64,000 bases of DNA from Saturnia japonica (taxonomy: Eukaryota; Arthropoda; Insecta; Lepidoptera; Saturniidae). The stretch covers positions 13,578,001 to 13,642,000 of the forward strand of contig CM065323.1 of NCBI GenBank assembly GCA_033032175.1, written 5' to 3'. The position numbers and the translations under genes are program-made. Of this stretch, positions 37,417-58,588 are shown in pieces. A model generated the notes under the pieces. It was not told the origin of the DNA. It did no database searches and saw only the letters and a program-made list of their open reading frames with translations. The number at the start of each line of letters is the position of its first letter. Position 1 is the first letter of the stretch.

Positions 37417-37700
37417 AGTTACGTCACCGTAATGATACGTGAGGTATCATTCCAATGCGTTCTCACGCATCTCATTACCACCTAATTAGCCATTAAGCAT
37501 CTTCCATGTAAGAAATAACAATAAGCTATTTTAAAACTGTAATCATGTAGATTAAGGTTAGGTTAAGTTTCCTTTCAATTGTTTCACAAGATATATAAAC
37601 CTTTGTAAACAAAATAAAGACAGTCTTGTTCTGCTATCCTCGTGTGTAACACTTCATTTGTGTTTTCAAAAAGCCTTTGGCTACCGCCTACAACCTAACT
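37417..37700 (+). repeat. LTR-A 5' LTR (284 bp)
   Basis: Begins AGTTACGTCACCG and ends CAACCTAACT. It contains TATATAAAC at about 37592 and AATAAA at about 37613, suitable as TATA box and polyadenylation signal. The 3' LTR (57759-58015 plus 56701-56717) is very similar but not identical (for example CATCTCATT against CATCACATT), so the insertion is not very recent. Confidence 0.85.
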
Positions 37701-37713
37701 GGCGCAGTCGGTA
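37700..37713 (+). other. LTR-A primer binding site (tRNA-Ser type)
   Basis: TGGCGCAGTCGGTA immediately follows the LTR and shares its T. The first 11 bases are complementary to a CCA end plus a CGACTGC acceptor stem as in tRNA-Ser, the primer class used by 17.6/297/ZAM-like elements. Confidence 0.75.
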
Positions 37714-38390: not shown

Positions 38391-39665
38391 ATAGGAGTAC
38401 ACATAAGTTTCCGTCGTTTTATTGCAGATGGCGCGGCACGGAGTTTCGGTTAGCTTTCGCAGATGATAACCGGCTTAAAAAATAGTTTGGACATTCAAGA
38501 ACAACATAACCTATTAATATCATTGATTTTATATTGGTAAAATATAATTTTTATAAGTTGAAAATGTCAAAATTTGAGCCAAGTAAGCGTCATTTGCGGG
38601 AAATATTAGTTTACTTCTTTAATTTAAAGAAATCTGCTGCTGAGGCGCATCAATTGCTCGTAGAAGCATATGATGAGGGTGCTTTGAGTGAGAGAACGTG
38701 TCGAGAGTGGTTTCAAAAGTTTAAAAACGGTGATTTCGACGTAGAAGACAAAGATCGCAGTGGAAGGTCAAAATCTTACGAGGATGCAGAATTGGAGGAA
38801 GATTCATCTCAAACACAAAAAGAACTTACTCTAACATTAGAAGTCACTCAGCAAGCAGTCTCACATCGTTTAAAATCATTAGGAACGATTCATAAACAAG
38901 GAAATTGGGTTCCGTACGAATTAAAGCCGAGAGATATTGAACGCCGATTATGCTTAAGTGAAATGCTGCTAGCTAGACATAAAAAAAGGGTTTTTTACAT
39001 CGTATCGTAACTGGTGATGAGAAGTGGATACATTATGACAATCCAAAAAGAAGAAAATCATGGGGATTACCTGGCCACGCGTCAACATAAACAGCAAAAC
39101 CGAATATTCACGGAAAAAAACTTATGCTGTGTATTTGGTGGGATCAGCTAGGTGTAGTGTATTATGAGTTGCTTAATCCGACCGAACCAATTACTGGAGC
39201 CCTCTATCGAACGCAATTGATGAGATTGAGCCGAGCTCTGAAGGAAAAACGCCCTCAATACTATTCTAGACACGAAAAAATTATTCTTCTGCATGACAAT
39301 GCTCGTCCATATGTTGCGGCTCCCGTGAAAAAGTACTTGGAAACACTTGATTGGGAAGTGTTACCCCACCCGCCATATTCACCAAACATTGCACCGTCCG
39401 ATTATCACCTGTTCCGGTCCATGGCACATGTTCTGACGGCGCAGCGGTTCACATCTTATGAGGATACCAAAAATTGGGTTGATTCGTGGATAGCCTCAAA
39501 AGACAAGAAGTTCTTCAGACGTGGCATTCAAATGCTGCCTGAGAGATGGGAAAAAGTGGTTGCAAGTGATGGGCAATTTTTAAATAAATTTATATTACCG
39601 TTCTTCTATAATAAATATTTAATTTGTGTTAAAAAACGGCGGAAACTTATTTGTACTCCTATATA
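38390..39665 (+). mobile_element. Mariner transposon inserted in LTR-A gag
   Basis: Terminal inverted repeats TATAGGAGTACACATAAGTT at the left and the reverse complement of TATAGGAGTACAAATAAGTT at the right, with TA at both outer edges. Length about 1.28 kb, normal for mariner. Removing it rejoins the gag frame (GGGAATTAATA with TTAGAGAAAG). Confidence 0.85.
38564..39640 (+). pseudogene. Mariner transposase, frameshifted
   Basis: Starts MSKFEPSKRHLREILVYFF, with the paired helix-turn-helix (SERTCREWFQKFKNGDFDVE) and the linker SGRSKSYEDAELEE. Catalytic residues of the D,D34D set are present: IVTGDEKW, LLHDNARPY and IAPSDYHLF. The chain is broken by a frame change in the homopolymer near 38990, a TAA at about 39089 within GHAST-TAKP, and no repair later. 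The WDQLGVVYYELL block suggests the cecropia/mellifera side of the family. Would have moved by cut-and-paste at TA. Confidence 0.85.
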
Positions 39666-39685
39666 TTATTAGAGAAAGAAAGTAA

Positions 39686-39818
39686 TGTAACATAAACAAA
39701 CGACGCATGCGCGCACACTCCGAGCCCCGGCTTGTCCGCCATGTTTAACCAGCACACCGACGCACACATACGAAGCGTCGCGCGTTATAAAGCCGAGCGC
39801 TACGGCCTACAGAGTCAG
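39686..39818 (+). repeat. LTR-B 5' LTR, promoter part
   Basis: 133 bp, nearly identical to 47387-47519. GC-rich with TATAA near its end. It stops at CCTACAGAGTCAG, the sequence duplicated around the LINE. The rest of the LTR resumes at 42504. Confidence 0.85.
39786..39818 (+). promoter_or_regulatory. LTR-B core promoter: TATA box and initiator
   Basis: TATAA at 39786-39790 and, 31 bases further, TCAG (A at 39817). In the uninterrupted LTR the sequence would read TCAGTGC, matching the arthropod initiator TCAGT. The spacing is the canonical one. The LINE begins one base after the predicted start. The 3' LTR has the same arrangement (TATAA at 47487, A at 47518). Confidence 0.65.
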
Positions 39819-40094
39819 GAGTGCCCGGTCCCGACGTGTACGGAGCACCCAGTCCGCGATTCACGGGGTGGAATGTGATTTCGCCTCGTGGTATTGTAAA
39901 CCACTGAGTATCCCTACTGCTCACACCCGCACCGTCTAAAAAGTGATTTCCCTCCTTGCCACTGTGACGCCATGTCCAACGGCAGGGAGTCTAAAGGCCC
40001 TTCTAAGGGCCACACAGCATCCAAAGGCCCTTCTTAGGGCCACCTACAGTCGGAAAACCAACGAAACCAGCAAAACCACCCGGACGCCGAGACT

Positions 40095-42086
40095 ATGCCT
40101 CGCAACCTTAACAAGGACCGCCCAACGGACAAAACCAGTCAGCCAACCAGAACGCCGAGTCGCGCATCGCCGCTTACAGCGACGACAGCGCCACGGACAG
40201 TTCGCGAAACTGCTACTGGACCAATCACGCGATCGCCCACTGCGCCTCGAGTGGCGCCACCTACCCCCACCCTGGCAGGTGAAGATTATGAGCGCGATAT
40301 TATCACTTTGGCCAGACTGATAGGAACCGGTATCCTATCTGAAGGAATTTTAAGGTGGATGGCGCTGTACCTTAGGGTACAAGAAGCTGAAATTGAAAAT
40401 ACCTTGTTATCGCGAGACGACCTTGCAGGTCTGGACTTTGCGGCCGCCGGAGTGCTTGCGGTACCGGAAATCGCACCCAAAATGGCTATTAGAAGCCCAA
40501 TCGCGCGTGCCGCCCGACGCAAACGCGAGGAAGATGACATGGAGGGGGGTAGATGTGCGAAGCGCCGCTCCCGCTCTTTCACTTGTACCGTATCGCCTAT
40601 AAAGATGGATTCCCCCCCCAAGCTGCAGTGCCACGGAGGGGAAAGTAATGAGCAGCCGCAACCTTTACCACAAATGGAAAAGAGAGCTGGGGTAGAAGGC
40701 ATCAAAGCCAGCCCCGTGCCACATTTTTCAGCTGAAAAGAGACAAACCACACCACCGACCCCGGTGGTCAGGAAATGCCAATCCGCACAGCCGTCGGCGC
40801 AGGCACCGGTTGCAGTAAAACCGGCACTCGCCAAATACGCGACGATTGCATCGCGATACATGAGTCCAATCAAGCCAAAGGATACGGGTCCACTTGTGAT
40901 CCCGAAGCCGAAGCCTGTGGAGACACCGTCCCAGCCGCGGTCGGTTAAAGACTCACAAGCTCTTTCGATTTCCAGTCAGGCACAGCAGACTACCGGTGTT
41001 CCCACAAAAACCGTAAGTAAAAGTGACAACAGATACCCGCCAATAGTTGTGGAGAAATTGCCACAATGGCATTTACACTTTACCGAGATAGCCAACCGAC
41101 TGGGACGAGCACCGAATGCGAGGCCCCTTGGGGAGGGTGTCCGATTCGTGCCCGAAGGCGAAAAGGAGTACCGTGTGGCGCAGCGATACCTCACGGATCT
41201 GAGTAAAACAGAACAGCTCTCTTGGTTCTCTTACTCGCTCCCGCAAGAAATTAGCCTGAAGGTCGCTATAAGGGGATTACCATCGGACACTGATGTTGAG
41301 CAAGTGAAAGCCGCCCTCGTGGAGAAGGGATATGAGGCAGAATATGTCAAAAATATACGGGCGCGCAGGGGACGCCCCGGTAGCGTATTCTTCGCTTCAA
41401 TTAAGCGCGACAAGAAAACTATTGAGGCTATATATCAGATCGATGAGCTGCTACTGATACGAGGCATCAGGATAGAGGCCTGGCGCGGGAAGATTGCACC
41501 CGCCCAGTGCCACCATTGCCAACAGTTTCGGCATAGCTCGAAACAATGTCACAGGAAGCAGGCCTGCGTGAGGTGCGGTGGACCCCACTTCGCTAGGGAC
41601 TGCGACCGCCCGCGTGAAGAGCCTCCGACATGCGCCAACTGCGGGGGGCCCCACCCTGCTAACTTTACGCAGTGCCCAGTGCTGCGGAAGGAGGCACGCA
41701 ACAAACGCGCCGGCACAGTAGCCAAGACGGGGGTAAAGAATGCTTTGCCAAAAGGGCAGGAGCTACCGCGGCTGAATACCGTTGAGGAGTCGGCCCAAGG
41801 GTCGCTCATGGCGCCGGCCAACAATCCGGTTAAGCAAGGAGGCGGGGCCCAGCCCAAAACTAGACGCCGTAGAAAGAATAAGAAACTGGAAGGGCTGGCT
41901 CAAACAGAGAGCCGCCCGCCAGCACAAGTACCAACTTCACAACCGCAGCAGCCACCGATGATCGGTGTTGCTATGCAGGCCTTTGGAGACCTTCCGGGAG
42001 GCAATCCTCGCTGTGTTAACGGCTGGGGGGGGGGGCAGGAATCTGCTCTGGGAGGCGTGATGAACATTTGCCACCAAGATGGTTGA
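40095..42086 (+). CDS. LINE-1 ORF1 (gag-like nucleic-acid chaperone)
   Basis: 663 codons from ATG 40095. The N-terminal half is rich in Pro, Thr and Arg and probably disordered. Around residues 365-455 is a folded region (SLKVAIRGLPSDTDVEQVKA, an RRM/PRE_C2HC-like domain preceding zinc knuckles). Then come three CCHC knuckles: CHHCQQFRHSSKQC, CVRCGGPHFARDC and CANCGGPHPANFTQC. The tail is Lys/Arg-rich (RRRRKNKKLE). Such proteins coat LINE RNA and target it to DNA. Its frame is complete, unlike ORF2. The stop overlaps the ORF2 start by 8 bases. Confidence 0.85.
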   Translation: MPRNLNKDRPTDKTSQPTRTPSRASPLTATTAPRTVRETATGPITRSPTAPRVAPPTPTLAGEDYERDIITLARLIGTGILSEGILRWMALYLRVQEAEIENTLLSRDDLAGLDFAAAGVLAVPEIAPKMAIRSPIARAARRKREEDDMEGGRCAKRRSRSFTCTVSPIKMDSPPKLQCHGGESNEQPQPLPQMEKRAGVEGIKASPVPHFSAEKRQTTPPTPVVRKCQSAQPSAQAPVAVKPALAKYATIASRYMSPIKPKDTGPLVIPKPKPVETPSQPRSVKDSQALSISSQAQQTTGVPTKTVSKSDNRYPPIVVEKLPQWHLHFTEIANRLGRAPNARPLGEGVRFVPEGEKEYRVAQRYLTDLSKTEQLSWFSYSLPQEISLKVAIRGLPSDTDVEQVKAALVEKGYEAEYVKNIRARRGRPGSVFFASIKRDKKTIEAIYQIDELLLIRGIRIEAWRGKIAPAQCHHCQQFRHSSKQCHRKQACVRCGGPHFARDCDRPREEPPTCANCGGPHPANFTQCPVLRKEARNKRAGTVAKTGVKNALPKGQELPRLNTVEESAQGSLMAPANNPVKQGGGAQPKTRRRRKNKKLEGLAQTESRPPAQVPTSQPQQPPMIGVAMQAFGDLPGGNPRCVNGWGGGQESALGGVMNICHQDG

Positions 42087-42490
42087 TACGCCTCTCAGAG
42101 TGGTTCATTGGAACGCACAGTCATCAAACAAGAAGCACTTAGTGCATTTTCTGCGAATTCAACATGTCGACATCATTTTGGTGTCCGAGATCTGCCCACG
42201 AACCAACGATAACTTCAAAATCCCGGGATCACCAGACCACCAGAGCAGTCATACCCTCGATGCAAGAGGAAGATTATGAAAGCCTCATGCGCGCCAACTC
42301 GTCCGTGCACCCATGCCGGATTGAGAAAGCGCGGGAAAAGAGGAGAATTCACAGGCCTCAGCGTCAGTTACGCAAGGCTTTATTACAGAGACACGCCCGT
42401 TGTAGCGGGCGTCGAAGACAGTCACCCATAGAGGGCTACGCCCTAAAGCGGTTTTCCCACACACTATCAGTGCGTGAGATGATAATTTAC
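42079..42490 (+). pseudogene. LINE-1 ORF2 start (APE endonuclease N-terminus), truncated
   Basis: ATG 42079 lies inside the end of ORF1 (ATGGTTGA). The protein reads LRVVHWNAQSSNKKHLVHFL then VDIILVSEI, the N and E motifs of an apurinic-type endonuclease that nicks target DNA. Similarity ends at FKIPGS near 42230; what follows is in other frames and appears to be 3'-end sequence. No reverse transcriptase remains, so this copy could move only with help from another. Confidence 0.75.
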
Positions 42491-42503
42491 GATACAGACT
42501 CAG

Positions 42504-42702
42504 TGCTGTTGCGTACGACGAAGCTTCCGCACCTAGTGGAACTAGCTGGACCAATAGCTCAATAGGGACTACGCATGCGAACAGAGGCGCTTCGTACATA
42601 CGAACACTTTCTGGTCCGTGTCTTTGTACTGTGAGCATTGTTATGTGGTGTATCAATTAAAAAGTTTTTTTTTTAAGTATCAAAGTCGTTTCATCTGTTA
42701 TA
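42504..42702 (+). repeat. LTR-B 5' LTR, R-U5 part
   Basis: Matches 50800-50989 with few changes and runs on to TGTTATA, the approximate inverse of the LTR start TGTAACA. It is followed at 42704 by TGGCGAACAACGTGAGG, the position and TGG start expected of a primer binding site. tRNA not assigned. Confidence 0.75.
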
Positions 42703-42807
42703 CTGGCGAACAACGTGAGGCCGACTACGACGTACATAACGAAGGCAGGAAGAGTTACTACGTATCCTGCTAAGAGTCAAAAAATTGTAAGCTGGACCAA
42801 GGCAGAC

Positions 42808-43871
42808 ATGACGACTTTAAGTGATGCACAACTGGCTCCCCTGATACATTCCATAACTTCTGCATCTACACGCAGGGTTCAATGGCTACTTGCACACATA
42901 CCTACGATGGATCCGGTGGCCAAGAAGACCTGGAAACTTTCGTTTCAGCAGTGAGCACTTTCAAAACTGTTGAAAATATTGCAGATACTGAAGCTTTGAT
43001 GGGTATCCCACTTGTTTTGCACGGAGAAGCGGCTATATGGTGGCAAGGGGTAAAAGAAAACATCACAACTCGGAATAACTTTGTGCCACGATTGCGTAAT
43101 GCATTTGCACCAAAGAAGCCTGCATACGTCCTATACAAGGAGATAATGTGTGAGGAGCAGCCGCCGAATCTGGCTACAGAGCGATTTGTTGCAAAGAAGA
43201 GGATGCTGTTTTCCATGCTGCCGCCACCAAATCACACGGAGACACAACAGATTGATATGATTTTTGGCCTTTTACATGTGAACATAAGAGGGCATATCGC
43301 ACGAAGTACGATATCTACCTTTGATAGTTTGATGGAAGTAGCACGGGGTATAGAAAATACCATAGAAGAAAAATCGACAAACCAACAACACCTACTCAAT
43401 CAGCCAAAGCATTATAAAAAGTCGCGGTGTACCTTCTGCAGATTACTCGGACACACATTTAATGACTGTCGGAGAGGATTGAAACAGGAAAAACTACCCG
43501 GTCCATCTAAAGTAACTTCAATGGAGCCTGTCATTAAATCGGAAGCAGTTACTCAGATGCCGTCATCTTCGCAGCCAAGATTTTTCTGTTACGGTTGTGG
43601 CGCACCTGGAGTGATCAGATCAAATTGTACGACATGTTATGGTCGCCACCACTCCCAACCAGCATCATCTAACTTAGGATTTTGCACAGTAAACATTCAG
43701 TCGGACATAAAACAGAGGCCGGTCGTATTTATAAACATTTACGGAATGGAGGGTAGTGCTTACCTGGACACTGGAGCCAAACTGAGTGTTGCTTCATACG
43801 ATTTATATTGTAAACTTCGGGAGCTAGGGATGACGTTTGGTAAAAGAGATTGCCAATGTTACTCTTGCTGA
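42808..43871 (+). pseudogene. LTR-B gag and start of protease
   Basis: Starts near MTTLSDAQLAPLI in one frame and shifts near 42880 into the long frame. That frame has DLETFVSAVSTFKTVENI, GIPLVLHGEAAIWWQGVK and FAPKKPAYVLYKEI, the gag capsid block of a common insect gypsy lineage. A CCHC knuckle (CTFCRLLGHTFNDC) is followed by a degenerate one (CYGCGAPGVIRSNC, lacking the His). The protease begins VFINIYGMEGSAYLDTGAKLSVAS with catalytic DTG. The frame closes at 43871; the protease C-terminus continues in another frame at 43837-44019. Confidence 0.75.
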
Positions 43872-45740
43872 TGGTATAAAAAGAAAACAGAAGGTATATA
43901 CCATTAAAGTACCCGTACAGATACAAGGAAAAGTTGTAATAACACCCTTCGTAATACTGCCTGAATCAAGAGACAATCGTACACTGCTTGGGATTGGCTT
44001 TATACAGATGCAGGACTGATTATAAATTTGCCGCAGTTTACAATGACATTCGTGGAGAACCCAGACGTGGTATACGAGTTGTACGAGGAAGGCTTTACTA
44101 TGTTCGTGCCGAAAGAAGAAGTTGTCACTTTTACCACGATTATGAACAATGTTAAATTGCCATCTCCAATATCCTCGTTGTCATATACACCACCAAGCTC
44201 ACCGGAAGCATCAGAAAAAGTTGCTGTGGATGCAGTATCAATGTCGGAAGTAGCTAAAAGAGACGCAGTTCAGCAGGCCGAGACATATGAGCAACCTAAA
44301 CCCCACTCGCCGATAAAGGCACCGACTAAACAACCGAAATTATTCGATGGTTATTCACCGGTTTTAAATCAACTCTGGTATGATTCCCGAAAAGCTATCC
44401 ATGAATCCAGCGTTACACTATCTCCGCACTCTCGGGAACTTTTTGATGGAACAGTGGACTGGGCATTGGATATCGATGCTTTCGAAATTGTGTCTAGCAG
44501 CATCGACACGGACCAGAATCGTGATCTCCAGAAACTTTTGTTTGAATTCCACGACGTGTTTGAGTCGAACGGCAAAGCCGTAAATTTTGTTCAACATACT
44601 ATTGATACTGGCAACTACGAACCACTTGCTGTGCCGCCATACAGACTTACACCGGGACGCAAAGAGATTCTTAGGAAGGAAATAAAGAAAATGATTGAGG
44701 AAGGCATTATAGAGACCTGTGTATCTCCATGGGCAGCACCAGTGGTGATGGTACCCAAAAAGAATGGAGAAATCAGAGTTTGTGTGGATTATAGAAGACT
44801 GAATGCGATCATTGTCCCTGATACCTACCCTATACCACGTATAGACGATCTACTACACGAAGCGAAATCAACACCTTTCATGACCACTTTAGATCTGAAA
44901 GCTGGCTACTGGCAAGTGAAAGTTAAGGAGGAAGATCAACACAAAACTGCGTTTATCTGCCCTTTCGGAATCTATAAATTTAAACGCATGCCGTTCGGCT
45001 TACCAAATGCCCCTGCAACATTTCAACGACTTATCGATCAATTTCGTACTGGAGTCGATAATATCAAGTTGCTGGCTTATTTAGATGATCTGATCGTCTT
45101 TTCGACCTCGTCCGAGAGCCATCTTTGTGACCTGAGAGACGTTTTCAAGCAGATGAGAGTATACAACCTGACTATTAATAAGAAGAAATGTAACTTTGTC
45201 GTTCCAAGGGTTAGGTACTTGGGTCACTACATCACTCCCGAGGAACTTCATGTTGATCCAGAGAAAGTGGCCGCTATCACCCAACTGCCTCTTCCAGGAA
45301 ACTTAAAACACCTAGTTTCATTTTTGCAGGCTTGCTCATGGTAGAGGAGATTTATAGAGAATGTTTCTCTGATTGCAGAGCCTCTTACTAGGCTTACCAA
45401 GAAAAGTGTAAAGTGGAAATGGGGTAACGAAAAAACGGAAGCATACGAAGTGTTAAAGCAAAAGCTAACATCTGCCCCAGTGCTTAAACAAGCCGACTAC
45501 ACTAAACCCTATGTTATAAAGACTGACGCCAGCAATTATGCTATAGGAGCCGTTTTAGTCCAGGGGGAGGGCCAGGATGAGCATCCAGTAGAGTATGCCA
45601 GTCGTCTGCTAACTAAGGCTGAAAAGAATTACTCTACCACAGAACGCGAAGCGCTGGCAGTGGTTTGGGCATTGAACAAATTTCGTGGCTACATAGAGGG
45701 AGTACCCGTAACTGTCGTTACAGATCACCAAGCCCTATAA
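43837..45740 (+). pseudogene. LTR-B protease end, reverse transcriptase and RNase H
   Basis: After the protease tail (TPFVILPESRDNRTLLGIGF) the 438-codon frame 44028-45344 holds a complete RT: VPKKNGEIRVCVDYRRLN, LDLKAGYWQVKV, FKRMPFGLPNAPATFQRL and YLDDLIVFS with the catalytic DD. It ends at a TAG after QACSW, where the family has Tyr-Arg-Arg-Phe. RNase H follows (KTDASNYAIGAVL, EYASRLLTKAEKNYSTTERE, VVTDHQAL) and is closed by a stop and frame change at 45738-45744. The polymerase core is otherwise well preserved. Confidence 0.8.
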
Positions 45741-45743
45741 TGA

Positions 45744-47168
45744 TTGATGACTATCAAGACGCCTACAGGAAGGTTGGCGAGATGGGCGTTACTCTTGCAA
45801 GCTTATGACGTCACTATTACGTATGCGTCGGGGAAAACGAATGTGGTAGCTGACGCACTATCACGTCCTCCGTGTACCGAAAAGCTCAAAAGGGATTGTG
45901 GTATTTGCTCGGTATCTACAGATATACCACCACGTGATCCGAGCGCAGTTAGAGGAGAACAATTGAAGGACGAATATATACGAAAGATAGTTAAGATTTT
46001 AGAAGATGTGAATAAGCATGAAGACGCAGCCTATTGTAGTAACAAGGGCTATGTTATGAACAATGGTCTACTCTATCGCTACAACCCCAATGCAGACACG
46101 GATGAAGCTCAATTGGTTGCCCCAGAGCATGAATGGGCCAACGTGTTGTCCGTCTACCACGATAATCCAATGGCAGAACACTATGGAGCTGAAAAAACGT
46201 TTCAAAGGATTTCATGTCGATACTATTGGAAGGGGATGCGAAAGTATATAGAAAGCTATGTGAAAAACTGCATCACTTGCCAACGTTATAAACCTTCCAA
46301 CATGAAGCCAGCTGGCTTGCTACAAACGTCTGCAATGTCTAAAAGATTTGAGGTTATATCTTTTGACCTATTTGGACCGTTGCCACTATCACAAGATGGA
46401 AAATCTTGGATATTAATAGTGGAAGATTTAGCGACAAGATGGATAGAACTGTTCGCCCTAGAAAAAGCAACAGCGGAAAGTTGTGCCACCACACTTATAA
46501 ATGAAGTGTTTTTACGATACGAGTACCACGTAGGATGGTTAGCGACAATGGCTCTCGATTCGTTAGCTCTGTGATGCAACAAGTAACCTTTTGTCTAAAC
46601 ATAAAACACGCTTTCACACCGGTTTACCAACCTGAAAAAAACCCCGTTGAAAGAAGGAATAGAGACTTAAAGACTCAGCTTGCCATGTTTGTAGAAGGAA
46701 GACATACAGACTGGCCAACTAAAATTCCAGTTATTCGTTTTGCGATGAATACTGCAGTGTGCTCTTCAACTAGCTATACCCCTGCTTACCTAACGTTTGG
46801 AAGAGTTGAAAACTAGTGATGACGTCCTTTACGATCTAAGAGCCATAGTATCGAGTGAGAATTTTATCGCCGAAATTACTCCGAAGCTTATGCAACTTGC
46901 TGAAGTATTGGAAAGAGGCAAAGAAGTACAAGAAATGAAGGAGGAAACGCGAAAAATCCTGGTAGATAGGACAAGAAGACAGGGTCCAAAGTACCAACCT
47001 GGAGAGTTAGTTCTAGCTCAAGTTCATTCGATTAGTAAAGCAACACAAGGAATTGGCTCTAAATTAGCTCCCCGCAGGGATGGGCCTTATGTCATTACCA
47101 AACACCAAGGTCCATCCTCATATCAATTGGCACACCCGGAGGATTCTCAAACAAACATTGGCATTTAA
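45744..47168 (+). pseudogene. LTR-B integrase
   Basis: The RNase H tail (ITYASGKTNVVADALSRPP) leads into the HHCC zinc site (HYGAEKTFQRI ... CITCQRYK) and the catalytic core with FDLFGPL (first D) and MVSDNGSRF (second D), reached through a frame change near 46535. Then comes EKNPVERRNRDLK (E). Another frame change near 46800 precedes the C-terminal domain (GELVLAQVHSISKATQGIGSK, RRDGPYVITK), a GPY/F-type module. The integrase inserts the DNA copy. Broken in at least two places. Confidence 0.75.
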
Positions 47169-47396
47169 CATTCCTCTGCTCTTGTGCCTTATCAGGGAAA
47201 TCCTGCTAATCTACCAAAACCTTCACAACCAATTAGGAAGAGAGGTCGACCTAAGAAAACCTCAATTGGCGCTGCCAATGTTTTTTTAGCAAAGAAACGA
47301 GGACGACCTCGTAAGACCAACAGTCATCCTCTTGCTGCAAAGGACTGTCCCCTCGTCGGGACGCCGTCGGATCCAGAGGGGGAGATTGTAACATAA
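47169..47396 (+). other. LTR-B AT-hook tail after integrase
   Basis: In the frame that follows the integrase, two AT-hook cores occur, KRGRPKK at about 47239 and KKRGRPRK at about 47295. They are spaced 18 residues apart in a Lys/Pro-rich tail that ends at the start of the 3' LTR. AT-hooks bind the minor groove of AT DNA and could bias integration. The preceding TAA at 47166-47168 breaks the link in this copy. Confidence 0.65.
47375..47385 (+). other. LTR-B polypurine tract
   Basis: GAGGGGGAGA directly before the TGTAAC of the 3' LTR, the primer for plus-strand DNA. Confidence 0.7.
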
Positions 47397-47519
47397 ACAA
47401 ACGACGCATGCGCGCACACTCCGAGCCCCGGCTTGACCGCCATGTTTAACCAGCACACCGACGCACACATACGAAGCGTCGCGCGTTATAAAGCCGAGCG
47501 CTACGGCCTACAGAGTCAG
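47387..47519 (+). repeat. LTR-B 3' LTR, promoter part
   Basis: Nearly identical to 39686-39818 and interrupted after the same CCTACAGAGTCAG. Confidence 0.85.
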
Positions 47520-48128
47520 GGGAGTTCCGAATCGGTCGCTATCGTGAACGGACGTGTCGCTCCGTTTGCGCTCTCGACCGTCACGTGACAATCGTTTACG
47601 ATCGTGTTTGGAATTTTTATTTCAAATATATCTTTGTAATACTCGTCGTACACCAACGGGTGTCTACGCTCGCGAAAAACCGCACTTTTCGGTGCGACTT
47701 TCTATGTTTTTTTTGTAAATCCACGGTTTTGTGGTCACTCGCTGGATACCTGACGGTGCCAACGAAGCTGAGTGGGGTGTGACCCGAGCAGCCCGCTGGT
47801 TGCCTCCTTCAGAGGCAAACAGCCAGACTCGGACGGGCCTGGGAATCTAGGCCTTTGCGGTATCGCATAGTCTGACCCCAGGTGTCTCCTGCCAAACCCT
47901 CCGATCCTGCAAGCCTCCATCCCCGAGAACCTGTTTGGGCCTAGCCCGGTTTAATTACCGGTCTGCGTCCTCAGTCCCGGGCTTGTTAGGGTTTCCTTAG
48001 GGCCGATAGGTTCTTCCTGTGTGTCATTGCACCTTGACCATAGGACTCTTGCCCGACTCGGATAGTCGTATTTAATTTTTGGCGCACCCCCCTGCCCCTA
48101 AGGCAGGGAGGCCTTAATTTAAATAAAC

Positions 48129-50080
48129 ATGTCCCAACTCCCACCCACCGCTGCCGAGATGGAAAAAACGACTACCGATCTGGCCACTTGCGTCAGCGAT
48201 TTGCAGGGCAGTATTAAGTCGATGGAATTCACCCATCTCCAATTTCAAAATTTTGTCATAGTACGAGATCCTTCAATCATGGAGGAATTTCGAAGTACAA
48301 AAAATATTCCCACCGCGCGTCGCATCGTTGCGACCGCGCCCAGTCAAGGGCCGCTACGGGGAGCGTGACGGCCGATGACGTAATCGTCAAACCGACTGGC
48401 GCCGCACCAGACGGCGCCACGCTGAAACGTACCGCGCGTAGCGTCGCGCGTCCGTCCGCCGCGACCAATCAGGGGGCCGCTTCTGCGAGCGGTGCGCCCT
48501 CTGTCAGAACCGTTAAGCCGACTGGCGACGTCGTGGAGAGACGTGGGTAGCGTCGCGCGTCCGTCCGCCACGTCATCCGGGGCCGTGGCCACTCCCACCG
48601 CCACGCCCCCAGTCCCGATTAGCCAGTCGCGCGGGTCAAGTCCCGCCTCCGTTAGGCGAGGGCCGCGTAATTCGCGTTCCCATTCTAGGCCGGCTAAAAA
48701 TAGCCCGTATGTCCGTCCCGCGCGTTCAATAGAAACCGCGATTAAAACAAATAATTCTTTTTCGGCCCTTCCGGTCGAATTAGACTCGCCTGCGAGCCCG
48801 GATCCGTATCCGGAGATGGATACCGCGGCCCCAAATGACGGTTTTACCGTTGTCGCGTCGCGCAAACGTCCGTCGCGAGTCAGCCCGTCTGCGCAGCCGT
48901 CTCGCGCAACTAAAACTGTGAAAACGGTTAGTGGCGCCGTCGCCTCCGCGTCCTCCACGCTCCCCGCACCCGCCGCCGCGAAAAAAGAGCGTACCCCACC
49001 TCCTATCACCGTCCGGGACAAGGCGCCTGGACGATTCTTGTCAATGAGCTGCGCAGGCTCAAGTTAGAATATCATAAAGCCCGCAATACCGTTAATGGTA
49101 TTTCCGTTACGGTGAGTTCATCGGAAACTCACCGTAAATTCACTGCCCTCCTCCGGGAGAGAGGGCTCCAATACTTCACCTACTCCCTTGCGGAGGAGCG
49201 CGTCCTCCGCGTGGTGATCCGCCGTATTCCGGTGGAAGTCAGCCCTGCGGAGTTGTGCTCCTCGCTCGCAGAGCAAAGATACCCAATATGAGAGGTACAT
49301 AGAATGTACAGCAAGGAGAAGCGGCCACTACAAATGGTAGTGGCCATTCTGGACCTTTCCCCCGAGGGAAAGGCCATCTTTCGCTTAGAAAGTGTATGCG
49401 GGCTCCTCGGCGTCACCGTTGAGCCCCAATATAAAAACCACATGCCTTCGCAAAGTCATAACTGCCAGCTCTACGGGCACGCTGCCCGTAACTGCCATCT
49501 TCGTCCGCGGTGCGTTAAATGTCGAGAGGACCACCCTACTAGGGAGTGCACGCGCGAGCGTGACTCCACCACTCCCCTGAGCTGCGTACTGTGCGGAGGG
49601 GAGGGGCACCCTGCGAATTATCGCGGATGCCCCAAAGCTCCGCGCACTACGCGACCTCAGCACCACAGGCAGGCGGCCCCCCGGGCGGCGCCTCCCGCCT
49701 CAGCCCTCCGAGCGCAACCCCTGCTGGCGCCAGGGGAATTTCCCGCGCTTCCGGTCCCTCGCCAGATCCCGGCCGCCGCCGGCCCTCCCGAGCCTCGCGG
49801 TCAATTACAACCCGTGCGTTCGGCTCCGAACGCATGGGGGCCCCGTCGCCCTAATCCACAGCCTCGTATGGCGATGCAAAATTCCGCGCCCCGCGCTCCC
49901 TCTCACGTTGCGAGCAACGATCTTATGATCCTGCTCCTTCGTGAGCACGGTATTCAGGAGGTCATCGACTACAATGACCATATAGAGCGTTACGGTCTCG
50001 TCAAGACCGTATGCGCCTTCCCCCGCCTCGTTGAGACGCTACACCGTCTCGACAGCGGCACATATGACCACCCGGCGTAA
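48129..50080 (+). pseudogene. LINE-2 ORF1 (gag-like), frameshifted
   Basis: Starts MSQLPPTAAEMEKTTTDLAT at 48129 and ends at a TGA after 80 codons. It resumes in another frame over a Ser/Ala/Pro-rich region (48492-49067), then RKFTALLRERGLQYFTYSLAEE and VLRVVIRRIPVEVSP, and finally 49304-50080 with zinc knuckles: CQLYGHAARNC (first Cys lost), CVKCREDHPTREC and CVLCGGEGHPANYRGC. The C-terminal IQEVIDYNDHIERYG block is helical. At least three breaks. Function as for other LINE ORF1 proteins. Confidence 0.7.
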
Positions 50081-50768
50081 ACGCCGGCCACGCAAAAATT
50101 TTATGTACTCGTATGTACAATAAACTCTCGATTCGTCTCTCCAAATAGAGCGTGACAGCGCCCACGCCCACGTAACCACCGTTCTCTCCGCAGAGGACGG
50201 GCGGTCAAACTAGCTCCCGCACACTCCATACGTTCACCCTCTTCAGCGGGTGACCCAAGCCTAGGTCCGTTTCCTCTGCGTGAAGCCCTTGGGTCAGGCA
50301 ACCGCCCGCACGATACAAGTGACACTGTACGTGCATCACTTAGCTACCTACATACAACACTACACACGTGCACACCACACAGGTACATAGGTTCTGTGAG
50401 GGACCTTTTTTTCTTTTTTTTGCGCTTGTTAGTTAGCGCTAGTTAGTGTAGAAAACATTTCCAATTTCTAAATACACACATGCACGGTTCCTTCCTTCCT
50501 CCCAGGAGGAAGGGAACGTGCCTATGTGTATAATTTAGTTAGCTCGAATCGTAGGTTGTAGGGATTCAATTAGATCGCGACTTATTTGCGAACGCGACGA
50601 CCACCCGAGCCGAGGCCCGGCCACTTTGGCACCCTTGTGCGAGTCGTCCATACAACTTTCGCGGCTGAGTGCCCTCTGCGCTCGCCCCCAAGTCCGGTGA
50701 AGCTGTAAAAGCCGCAGCGGCTCTGTTTTTGGATAGGGCCCTTAAGGCTAACAGTGTAGTCAGTTAAT
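50081..50768 (+). other. LINE-2 3' UTR
   Basis: Non-coding. Its CCTAGGTCCG, TTCCTTCCTTCCTCCCAGGAGG and TAGTTAGTGTAGA landmarks recur at 13340-13745 and 29725-30130, showing that this LINE family has other, truncated insertions nearby. Confidence 0.75.
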
Positions 50769-50799
50769 AAAAAAAAAAAAAAAAAACCTACTGAGTCAG

Positions 50800-50989
50800 T
50801 GCTGTTGCGTACGGCGAAACTTCCGCACCTAGTGGAACTAGTTGGACTAATAGCTCAATAGGGACTACGCATACGAACAGAGGCGCTTCGTACATACGAA
50901 CTCTTTCTGGTCCGTGTCTTTGTACTGTGAGTATTGTTATGTGGTGTATCAATTAAAAAGTTTTTTTTTAAAGTATCAAAGTCGTTTCA
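50800..50989 (+). repeat. LTR-B 3' LTR, R-U5 part, 3'-truncated
   Basis: Matches 42504-42693 and stops at GTCGTTTCA. The TCTGTTATA ending of the 5' LTR is missing, replaced directly by LTR-A gag sequence. Confidence 0.75.
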
Positions 50990-57758: not shown

Positions 57759-58015
57759 GTATCATTCCAATGCGTTCTCACGCATCACATTACCACCTAA
57801 TTAGCCATTAAGCACCTTCCATGTAAGAAGTAACAATAAGCTATTTTGAAACTGTAATCATGTAGATTAAGGTTAGGTTAAGTTTCCTTTCAATTGTTTC
57901 ACAAGATATATAATCCTTTGTAAACAAAATAAAGACAGTCTTGTTTTGCTATCCTCGTGTGTAACACTTCATTTGTGTTTTTAAAAAGCCTTTCGCTCCC
58001 GCCCCCAACCTAACT
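57759..58015 (+). repeat. LTR-A 3' LTR, remainder
   Basis: GTATCATTCCAATGCG through CCCCCAACCTAACT, closely matching 37445-37700. CACG (58016-58019) follows as target duplication. Confidence 0.85.
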
Positions 58016-58019
58016 CACG

Positions 58020-58588
58020 CCAGAAAAAAATCGACTACTGATGTTACATGAAGAAAAGGAAAGAAAACGACAAGTTAAATTGATAAAACAGAAAGCAAAG
58101 GAGTTGAAAACGGCAAAGAATTTATTGGGGCTTTACAGAATTAAAAAAACCTAAAACGAAAAATGTCTGTTCCCATTTAAAGCCAATATCAGACTCCGAT
58201 TCTAGTGAAAATGAATCGTTTAAATTAAGTGATAACGACGAGTATGAAGAATCTGATGCAAGAGGTGCAGTAGAGTTTGATGTACCTAATCCTGAAAATA
58301 TAAATATTGGGGATTTCCTACTTATCAAATTTGAAAAGAAGACGTCTGTAGTATATTACGTTGCCAAAGTAATTTCTAAATATAATTTTTGACTGAATAT
58401 CAAGTGTCTTATCTCAGAAAAAATCCAAGGTCTTATGTTTTTGTTTTTCCAAATGTAGAAGATAAAGCAAGTGTTGATTTTAGAGATATAGTTTTACACT
58501 TACCTAAACCAAACTTTATAAAAGGTACAGCTCGAACATCATCTTTGTTCTCTTTTTCAGTTGATTTAAGTGCATACAACGTGCAATA
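58020..58588 (+). pseudogene. Tigger transposase, C-terminal domain beyond the insertion
   Basis: The first codons complete the TPEKN motif begun before LTR-A and continue as a Lys/Glu-rich helix (EEKERKRQVKLIKQKAKEL). Further on are NINIGDFLLIKF, VYYVAKVI, a stop at about 58390, then SYLRKNPRSYVFVFPNVEDK and DIVLHLPKP, ending FSFSVDLSAYNVQ. This domain is the usual end of Tigger/jerky-type proteins in insects. Its placement proves which host sequence was interrupted. Confidence 0.75.

What the first reader, a model, noticed from the sequence alone, without database searches (positions are those of the whole stretch)
39686..50989. Two different LINEs sit at the same base in the two LTRs of one gypsy element, at the predicted transcription start
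Both LTR-B LTRs are split after CCTACAGAGTCAG, at 39818 and 47519. The 5' LTR holds LINE-1 and the 3' LTR holds LINE-2. Their 5' UTRs, ORF1 proteins and 3' ends differ, so they are not copies of one event. Both lie in LTR orientation and both show a 10-13 bp duplication of the target. The break is 31 bases after a TATA box, at TCAG|T, the arthropod initiator. Site-specific R1-clade LINEs exist for rDNA and telomeres. A LINE group that aims at an LTR initiator, and so gains a ready-made promoter at its own first base, would be new to my knowledge.
Basis: partly seen in the sequence, partly recalled or inferred. Interest (0 to 1): 0.87.

Follow-up and report, generated by a model that had tools for sequence, protein, structure and literature searches.

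The report
LINEs that jump into TATA promoters
In this genome, probably that of a moth or butterfly, two related families of jumping genes land again and again about 30 bases after TATA boxes, close to where genes begin to be read, which could hand each new copy a ready-made promoter.

Summary
Both LTRs of the gypsy element are split after CCTACAGAGTCAG, LINE-1 at 39818|39819 and LINE-2 at 47519|47520, with 11- and 13-bp target duplications. The LINEs share no DNA similarity; their ORF1s are 25% alike. The reading needs widening: the target is not this LTR but TATA promoters at large. All 18 places found with the LTR's 5' half lead into LINE sequence, 16 at LTR bases 118-133. Elsewhere the flanks are mostly unrelated but often share a TATA box about 33 bp before the LINE. 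Of 503 exact 5'-end words of the LINE-2 group, TATAWA 16-46 bp in front gives 215 rows (TATATA runs counted repeatedly), against 26 in the next window upstream; with ends counted once on six contigs, 32 of 96 against 2 of 96. Of 82 listed ends, 67 have TATA 32-36 bp ahead. Sense TATAAA 109, antisense 20. Truncated copies obey it too, so insertion itself is aimed. Duplications mostly span about bases 20 to 31 after TATA. Many copies lack a clear TATA box. The RT is Jockey-like; R1 was not tested. Best explanation: docking on the Pol II initiation complex, capturing the start site. Pattern shown; mechanism inferred.

The parts
39686..39818 (+). 5' LTR-B, upstream half (U3) up to the insertion point
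39786..39792 (+). TATA box (TATAAAG), first T 33 bp before LINE-1
39808..39818 (+). 5' copy of the LINE-1 target duplication TACAGAGTCAG
39819..42492 (+). LINE-1: full 5' end, ORF1 with PRE_C2HC-like region and CCHC knuckles, start of an endonuclease-like ORF2 (by eye), internal deletion, 3' end
42493..42503 (+). 3' copy of the LINE-1 target duplication TACAGACTCAG (1 mismatch)
42504..42693 (+). 5' LTR-B, downstream half
42694..47386 (+). gypsy/Ty3 internal region with Ty3_capsid and RVT_1 matches, frames broken
47387..47519 (+). 3' LTR-B, upstream half; TATAAAG at 47487
47507..47519 (+). 5' copy of the LINE-2 target duplication CCTACAGAGTCAG
47520..50786 (+). LINE-2: full 5' end, broken ORF1 (PRE_C2HC), 3' UTR and A tail; no ORF2
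50787..50799 (+). 3' copy of the LINE-2 target duplication CCTACTGAGTCAG (1 mismatch)
50800..50989 (+). 3' LTR-B, downstream half

Best explanation
LINE-1 and LINE-2 belong to a Jockey-like LINE group whose insertion is aimed at TATA-type RNA polymerase II core promoters. Shown in sequence: copies lie mostly in the sense of the TATA box with LINE base 1 about 33 bp after its first T; target duplications of about 7-13 bp run mostly from about base 20 (first nick) to about base 31 (second cut) counted from that T; truncated copies follow the same rule; insertion leaves the TATA box in place, so one promoter can be hit again and LINEs stack. Inferred: the LINE particle is brought there by a promoter-bound protein (TBP/TFIID or the open Pol II complex, whose melted stretch, as I recall, is about -9 to +2), nicks the template strand at the upstream edge and starts target-primed reverse transcription; a full-length copy then has its first base at or just after the host start site and is transcribed from the captured promoter. 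The LTR-B start site, hit in all copies seen, is one multicopy instance.
For: LTR-B: 18 of 18 places lead into LINE sequence, 16 of 18 breaking at LTR bases 118-133, with LINE-1, LINE-2 and other truncation points, two stacked. LINE-2 group genome-wide: 503 exact words GTTCCGATTTGGTC; TATAWA 16-46 bp before it 215 rows, reversed-pattern control 0; 47-77 bp before it 26 rows; counted once per end on C1-C6, 32 of 96 against 2 of 96; 67 of the 82 distinct ends's 100 listed rows have TATA 32-36 bp ahead; sense TATAAA 109, antisense 20. Letters read: 48 junctions kept of 54, in 42 flank groups, TATAWA at -45..-29 in 18 of 42, against a first-order resampling mean of 1.2 and maximum of 6 in 1000. 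DNA after target TATA boxes is 51% GC, against 32% after TATAWA in fetched loci (32 against 1028). Copies with a 967-aa ORF2 frame: 41 on C1-C6 in the capped list (one holds a TAG), 23 with the 5' word 4.2-4.4 kb upstream, 12 of these with TATAWA. Truncated copies with duplications: 4 of 6 kept have TATAWA just upstream.
Against: No transcript, protein or binding data, and no other LINE family of this genome was run as a control. Strict TATAWA is met by 32 of 96 ends and 18 of 42 flank groups; by a loose matrix 35 of 54 junctions score 6 or more at -45..-29 (8 of 17 LINE-1, 27 of 37 LINE-2) and 19 do not: L011, L012, L013 (just under), L017, L021, L022, L025, L031, L036, L095, L098, L101, L103, L105, L113, L118, L119, L120, L121. 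Among 48 junctions TTTATA (antisense) also rises a little in that bin, 4 against 13 for TATAAA. L020 sits beside the same 57-bp promoter as L097 but in the opposite direction. L055 broke the LTR at base 44 in antisense and L054 at base 72. The second LTR-like pair of the window (37444-37705, 57759-58020) has a TATA-like box and no LINE. Nicks at L067, L105 and L106 lie 6, 14 and 14 bases after the T. Whether the targets are active promoters is unknown.
Confidence: 0.72

Rival explanations
1. The LINE's own endonuclease or ORF1 protein reads TATA DNA (or its bend) directly, with no transcription machinery involved; promoter position is a by-product.
For: TATA is the element seen in common among the flanks; L020 uses the TATA of the L097 promoter from the other side; known sequence-specific LINEs are aimed at DNA sequences.
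Against: The nick lies about 20 bases from the T with no shared motif at the nick that I could see (by eye); polarity 109 to 20; target TATA boxes are followed by GC-richer DNA than TATAWA at large.
Confidence: 0.2
2. One reading: the LINEs are specific for the LTR-B initiator.
For: All 16 LTR-B halves that keep the site are hit.
Against: The copies of both LINEs outside LTR-B lie at other sequences, 42 flank groups among 48 junctions.
Confidence: 0.03
3. Gypsy reverse transcription switched template at the U3/R boundary and pulled LINE mRNA into the LTR.
For: The break is at the predicted U3/R boundary.
Against: Target duplications behind A tails, LINEs of many truncation points at the same spot, and the same TATA spacing outside LTR-B.
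Confidence: 0.02
4. Biased survival, ascertainment or assembly artefact: copies near TATA are kept, found or joined more often.
For: Full-length 5' ends were used for the first surveys; the window array has a near-copy 1.3 Mb away.
Against: 5'-truncated copies follow the rule; a flank is not inherited by daughter copies; the pattern recurs on many contigs; spacing is narrow.
Confidence: 0.03

Closest known systems
TRE5-A of Dictyostelium (LINE aimed upstream of tRNA genes)
   Same: A non-LTR retrotransposon with APE endonuclease sent to the start region of genes through the transcription machinery; its ORF1 protein interacts with TBP, Brf1 and Bdp1 (PMC5911963, passages read).
   Different: Pol III genes, about 44-54 bp upstream, in opposite orientation; here TATA promoters of Pol II type, about 33 bp after TATA, mostly in sense.
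Ty3 of yeast
   Same: Aimed at the transcription initiation region; insertion needs TBP and Brf1 (PMC5911963, passages).
   Different: LTR element with integrase, Pol III genes.
R1-clade site-specific LINEs (R1, TRAS, SART, Waldo; names recalled)
   Same: APE-type LINEs with precise target sites.
   Different: [quoted passage not shown] core promoters are not in that list, and most specific families are said to fall in early-branched, Tx1 and R1 groups, not Jockey.
Jockey-clade LINEs of insects
   Same: RT and PRE_C2HC/CCHC ORF1 relatives.
   Different: No strict target specificity in this group is known to me (recalled; TART at Drosophila telomeres aside).

Membership tests
non-LTR retrotransposon (LINE) | LINE-type RT, A-rich 3' tail, variable 5' truncation, variable-length target duplications | tested here: met
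Jockey clade | RT closest to Jockey elements | tested here: inconclusive
   338-aa RT piece: best hits with an organism name are lepidopteran (two called jockey, 43-51%) or labelled Acinetobacter baumannii, probably contaminants; no tree with R1 references was built
Jockey clade | ORF1 with CCHC knuckles of Jockey type | tested here: met
   PRE_C2HC in both ORF1s, LINE-1 at 22.0 bits just under the 22.1 cut-off; named hits include jockey-like and X-element proteins
R1 clade | RT within R1 | not tested
   no R1 reference compared; none of the listed rows is named R1
target-specific LINE | most copies share one target | tested here: inconclusive
   strong preference for TATA at fixed spacing, but strict TATAWA in 32 of 96 ends and a loose match in 35 of 54
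TRE5-A-like transcription-factor-guided LINE | target chosen by a promoter-bound protein complex | not testable with these tools
   needs binding or retrotransposition assays

The most novel reading that the evidence does not exclude
A LINE lineage that uses the assembled RNA polymerase II preinitiation complex as its landing site, cutting the two edges of the start-site bubble, so that every full-length copy is born at +1 of a foreign promoter. It need carry no promoter of its own, turns LTRs and host genes into its promoters, and never uses up its target because TATA stays upstream.
Probability: 0.55. Interest if true: 0.93.

Novelty: new variant of a known kind. Interest (0 to 1): 0.86.

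Why it matters
LINEs must be transcribed from their first base, and how a promoterless copy escapes being dead on arrival is an old problem. These elements appear to solve it by landing at ready-made start sites. If so, their insertions would be a natural map of TATA promoters in use in the germ line, they would put LINE RNA under host or LTR control and cut genes off from their promoters, and they would offer a way to study how target-primed reverse transcription can be aimed at promoters. With many copies of an intact-length ORF2 frame (54 of the 119 scored rows show 967 aa, one with a TAG; my count), the idea can be tested directly.

Tried and rejected
Rejected: LTR-B-only specificity; gypsy template switching; survival or ascertainment bias. 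Left open: the R1 label (untested). Considered: that sites are splice acceptors (CAG|G at a few early flanks); the larger sample did not look like it, but I did not test it. Extra G residues before LINE base 1 may be cap-derived or subfamily differences; not resolved. Searches for the LTR-B downstream half and for the empty L091/L130 site did not complete, so no empty-site survey exists beyond. Paper searches for LINEs aimed at TATA or start sites (titles and abstract starts only) gave no report of it; most subscription papers are not in that library. One search was for TRE5-A. Papers opened, passages only: PMC5911963, PMC4640811, PMC3276498, PMC4120745. PMC3276498 excluded non-LTR elements and so says nothing on them.

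Rows dropped: one search listed 32 matches, 30 with loci; the 17 that reach LINE-1 base 1 or 2 were used. One search listed 40 (1003 first-look candidates); 38 were fetched (not the window's own and its near-copy) and L124, part of that near-copy, was left out, giving 37. One search dropped 6 of 54 (L010 near-copy; L025, L107, L119, L121 behind another LINE's A tail or end; L095 filler); 30 loci, 8 with a duplication candidate, L062 (tandem repeat) and L083 (9 bp, offset) set aside, 6 kept; 22 pairs, 14 without a recognised tail, 7 found by script, L100/L137 by eye. The TATA-like word from which nick distances are counted was picked by eye, which is circular for weak words. The wide word list was chosen after seeing flanks; TATAWA is the standard consensus. 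The matrix is written from memory. One search's 32 sites include related promoters, and LINE-added G may lift their GC a little.
Full report
OBSERVATION. The window lies in an unnamed 580-Mb assembly (402 contigs; window = C20:13578001-13642000). Each LTR is broken after CCTACAGAGTCAG; TATAAAG starts at LTR base 101 and the break is after base 133. LINE-1 (39819-42492) is followed by TACAGACTCAG and LINE-2 (47520-50786) by CCTACTGAGTCAG, each a target duplication with one mismatch. The LINEs share no DNA similarity beyond three chance words; the ORF1s are distant relatives, 25% over 204 aa (LINE-1 against L125), both with a PRE_C2HC match (LINE-1 just under Pfam's cut-off). LINE-1 has lost most of ORF2 (by eye); LINE-2 has none, and the same ORF1-only form was seen at L125.

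ALL LTR-B COPIES SEEN ARE HIT. A genome search with the 134-bp LTR half gave 18 places. In 18 of 18 the 500 bases after the LTR match hold LINE sequence, by DNA match to LINE-1, LINE-2 or L125, or by protein match to LINE RTs. In L049 some 40 bases of filler come first; in L056 the DNA match starts 283 bases on, though the frame before it reads like the same RT. The break is at LTR base 133 (5 places), 131 (2), 130 (4), 129, 128, 127, 119 and 118 (1 each), that is after 18 to 33 bases counted from the T of TATA; the other two break at 72 and at 44 (antisense). L039/L040 and L041/L042 are near-copies, L043/L044 carry the same insert, and L046 shares its truncation point with them, so I count 12 or 13 independent events at the site. 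L052 and L053 hold stacked insertions: LINE end, A tail, target copy, second LINE. No empty LTR-B was seen; the 12 fetched loci (some overlapping) that hold GAGTCAGTGCTGTTGCG all have an A tail in front of the target. Searches with the LTR's other half did not complete.

THE TARGET IS THE TATA PROMOTER. Copies of LINE-1 (flanks) and LINE-2 (38 junctions fetched, printed) stand mostly at unrelated sequences, often with TATA boxes at a fixed distance. Of 54 junctions tabulated (17 LINE-1, 37 LINE-2), 48 were kept for statistics, in 42 flank groups: strict TATAWA starts at -45..-29 in 18 of 42, against a resampling mean of 1.22 and a maximum of 6 in 1000, with 0-3 in the other bins. By a loose matrix 35 of 54 score 6 or more there. 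Sense TATAAA is in that bin in 13 of 48, TTTATA in 4 of 48.

GENOME SCALE. The exact 5'-end word GTTCCGATTTGGTC occurs 503 times. TATAWA 16-46 bp in front: 215 rows, reversed control 0; 47-77 bp in front: 26 rows. Rows count TATATA runs more than once; on C1-C6, where both lists run complete and ends are counted once, 32 of 96 against 2 of 96. Among the 100 rows that one search listed are 82 distinct ends, 67 with TATA 32-36 bp ahead. Orientation matters: sense TATAAA 109 rows, its reverse complement 20. DNA after target TATA boxes is 51% GC, against 32% after TATAWA in the fetched loci.

NOT A BIAS OF FULL-LENGTH COPIES. Truncated LINE-2-type copies with clear duplications also have TATA upstream: L064, L067, L070, L076 (TATAWA); L080 and L066 have weaker words; and the truncated LTR-B inserts sit at the same spot. 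Full-length copies with both ends read give duplications such as GCCAACGAGC after TATAAAAGGCGCACTACTGGG (L091/L130), AATGGACTGGC after TATTTCTGCCGACAGCCGGC (L098/L135), CCTCTTCTATCG (L102/L139) and TTAGAGAAAAA (L094/L125). For 15 sites, with the TATA-like word picked by eye, the first nick lies 18-22 bases after the first T in 11 of 15 (others L080 17, L105 14, L106 14, L067 6) and the second cut 28-34 bases after it in 12 of 15.

THE ELEMENTS LOOK YOUNG. A 338-aa RT piece read from L052 found 17108 first-look candidates; 119 rows were scored, the query's own locus at 100% and the rest at 98%, and 54 of the 119 show an open frame of 967 aa, one with a TAG (my count). Of 41 such copies on C1-C6, 23 have the 5' word 4.2-4.4 kb upstream and 12 of these have TATAWA. 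Named relatives of the RT are lepidopteran, mostly 43-52% identical (one Antheraea piece 65%), besides entries labelled Acinetobacter baumannii that are probably contaminants; ORF1 hits are PRE_C2HC proteins of Lepidoptera, with similar bacterial labels. The organism is probably a lepidopteran (inference).

MECHANISM. The duplicated stretch (about -10 to +1 if the start is some 31 bp after TATA) is close to the stretch melted by Pol II at initiation (recalled). I therefore favour docking on a promoter-bound complex, by analogy with TRE5-A and Ty3, which use TBP-containing TFIIIB (PMC5911963, passages). Direct reading of TATA DNA is the main rival. Both keep the central claim: site choice is tied to the core promoter, the LINE begins at or just after the predicted start site, and the target survives insertion.

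NOVELTY. [quoted passage not shown] My nine paper searches (listings) showed no LINE aimed at TATA promoters; subscription papers are mostly missing from the library.

Noticed in passing
2082-34762: Tandem duplication with copies 16384-16386 bp apart, 98-100% identical in the stretches listed.
   Followed up: no
37444-37705 and 57759-58020: A second, unrelated LTR-like pair, 95% identical without gaps, with TATATAAA near 37592 and no LINE inside; the LTR-B element and a mariner-like transposase (38510-39672, by eye) lie between.
   Followed up: partly
G000:C20:12327880-12342568: Near-identical copy of the LTR-B/LINE-1/LINE-2 array with the same downstream flank and an extra piece of LINE-2 plus LTR.
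   Followed up: partly
47520-50786 and L125:1-2901: ORF1-only LINE form with both ends present, a likely parasite of the ORF2-bearing family.
   Followed up: partly
L043 and L044 (C15): The same truncated LINE at the same base in two LTR-B copies 3.9 kb apart: either the gypsy element copied a LINE-loaded LTR, or a local duplication.
   Followed up: no
L020 and L097: Same 57-bp promoter stretch, 100% identical, with LINE-1 and LINE-2 inserted on opposite sides of its TATA in opposite directions.
   Followed up: partly
L016 and L103: LINE-1 and LINE-2 each inserted in a copy of the same repeat (92% over 97 bp), both just after TCAGG: a second shared target besides LTR-B.
   Followed up: partly
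L088-L118 junctions: Variable runs of extra G between flank and LINE base 1, possibly reverse-transcribed cap or added bases.
   Followed up: no
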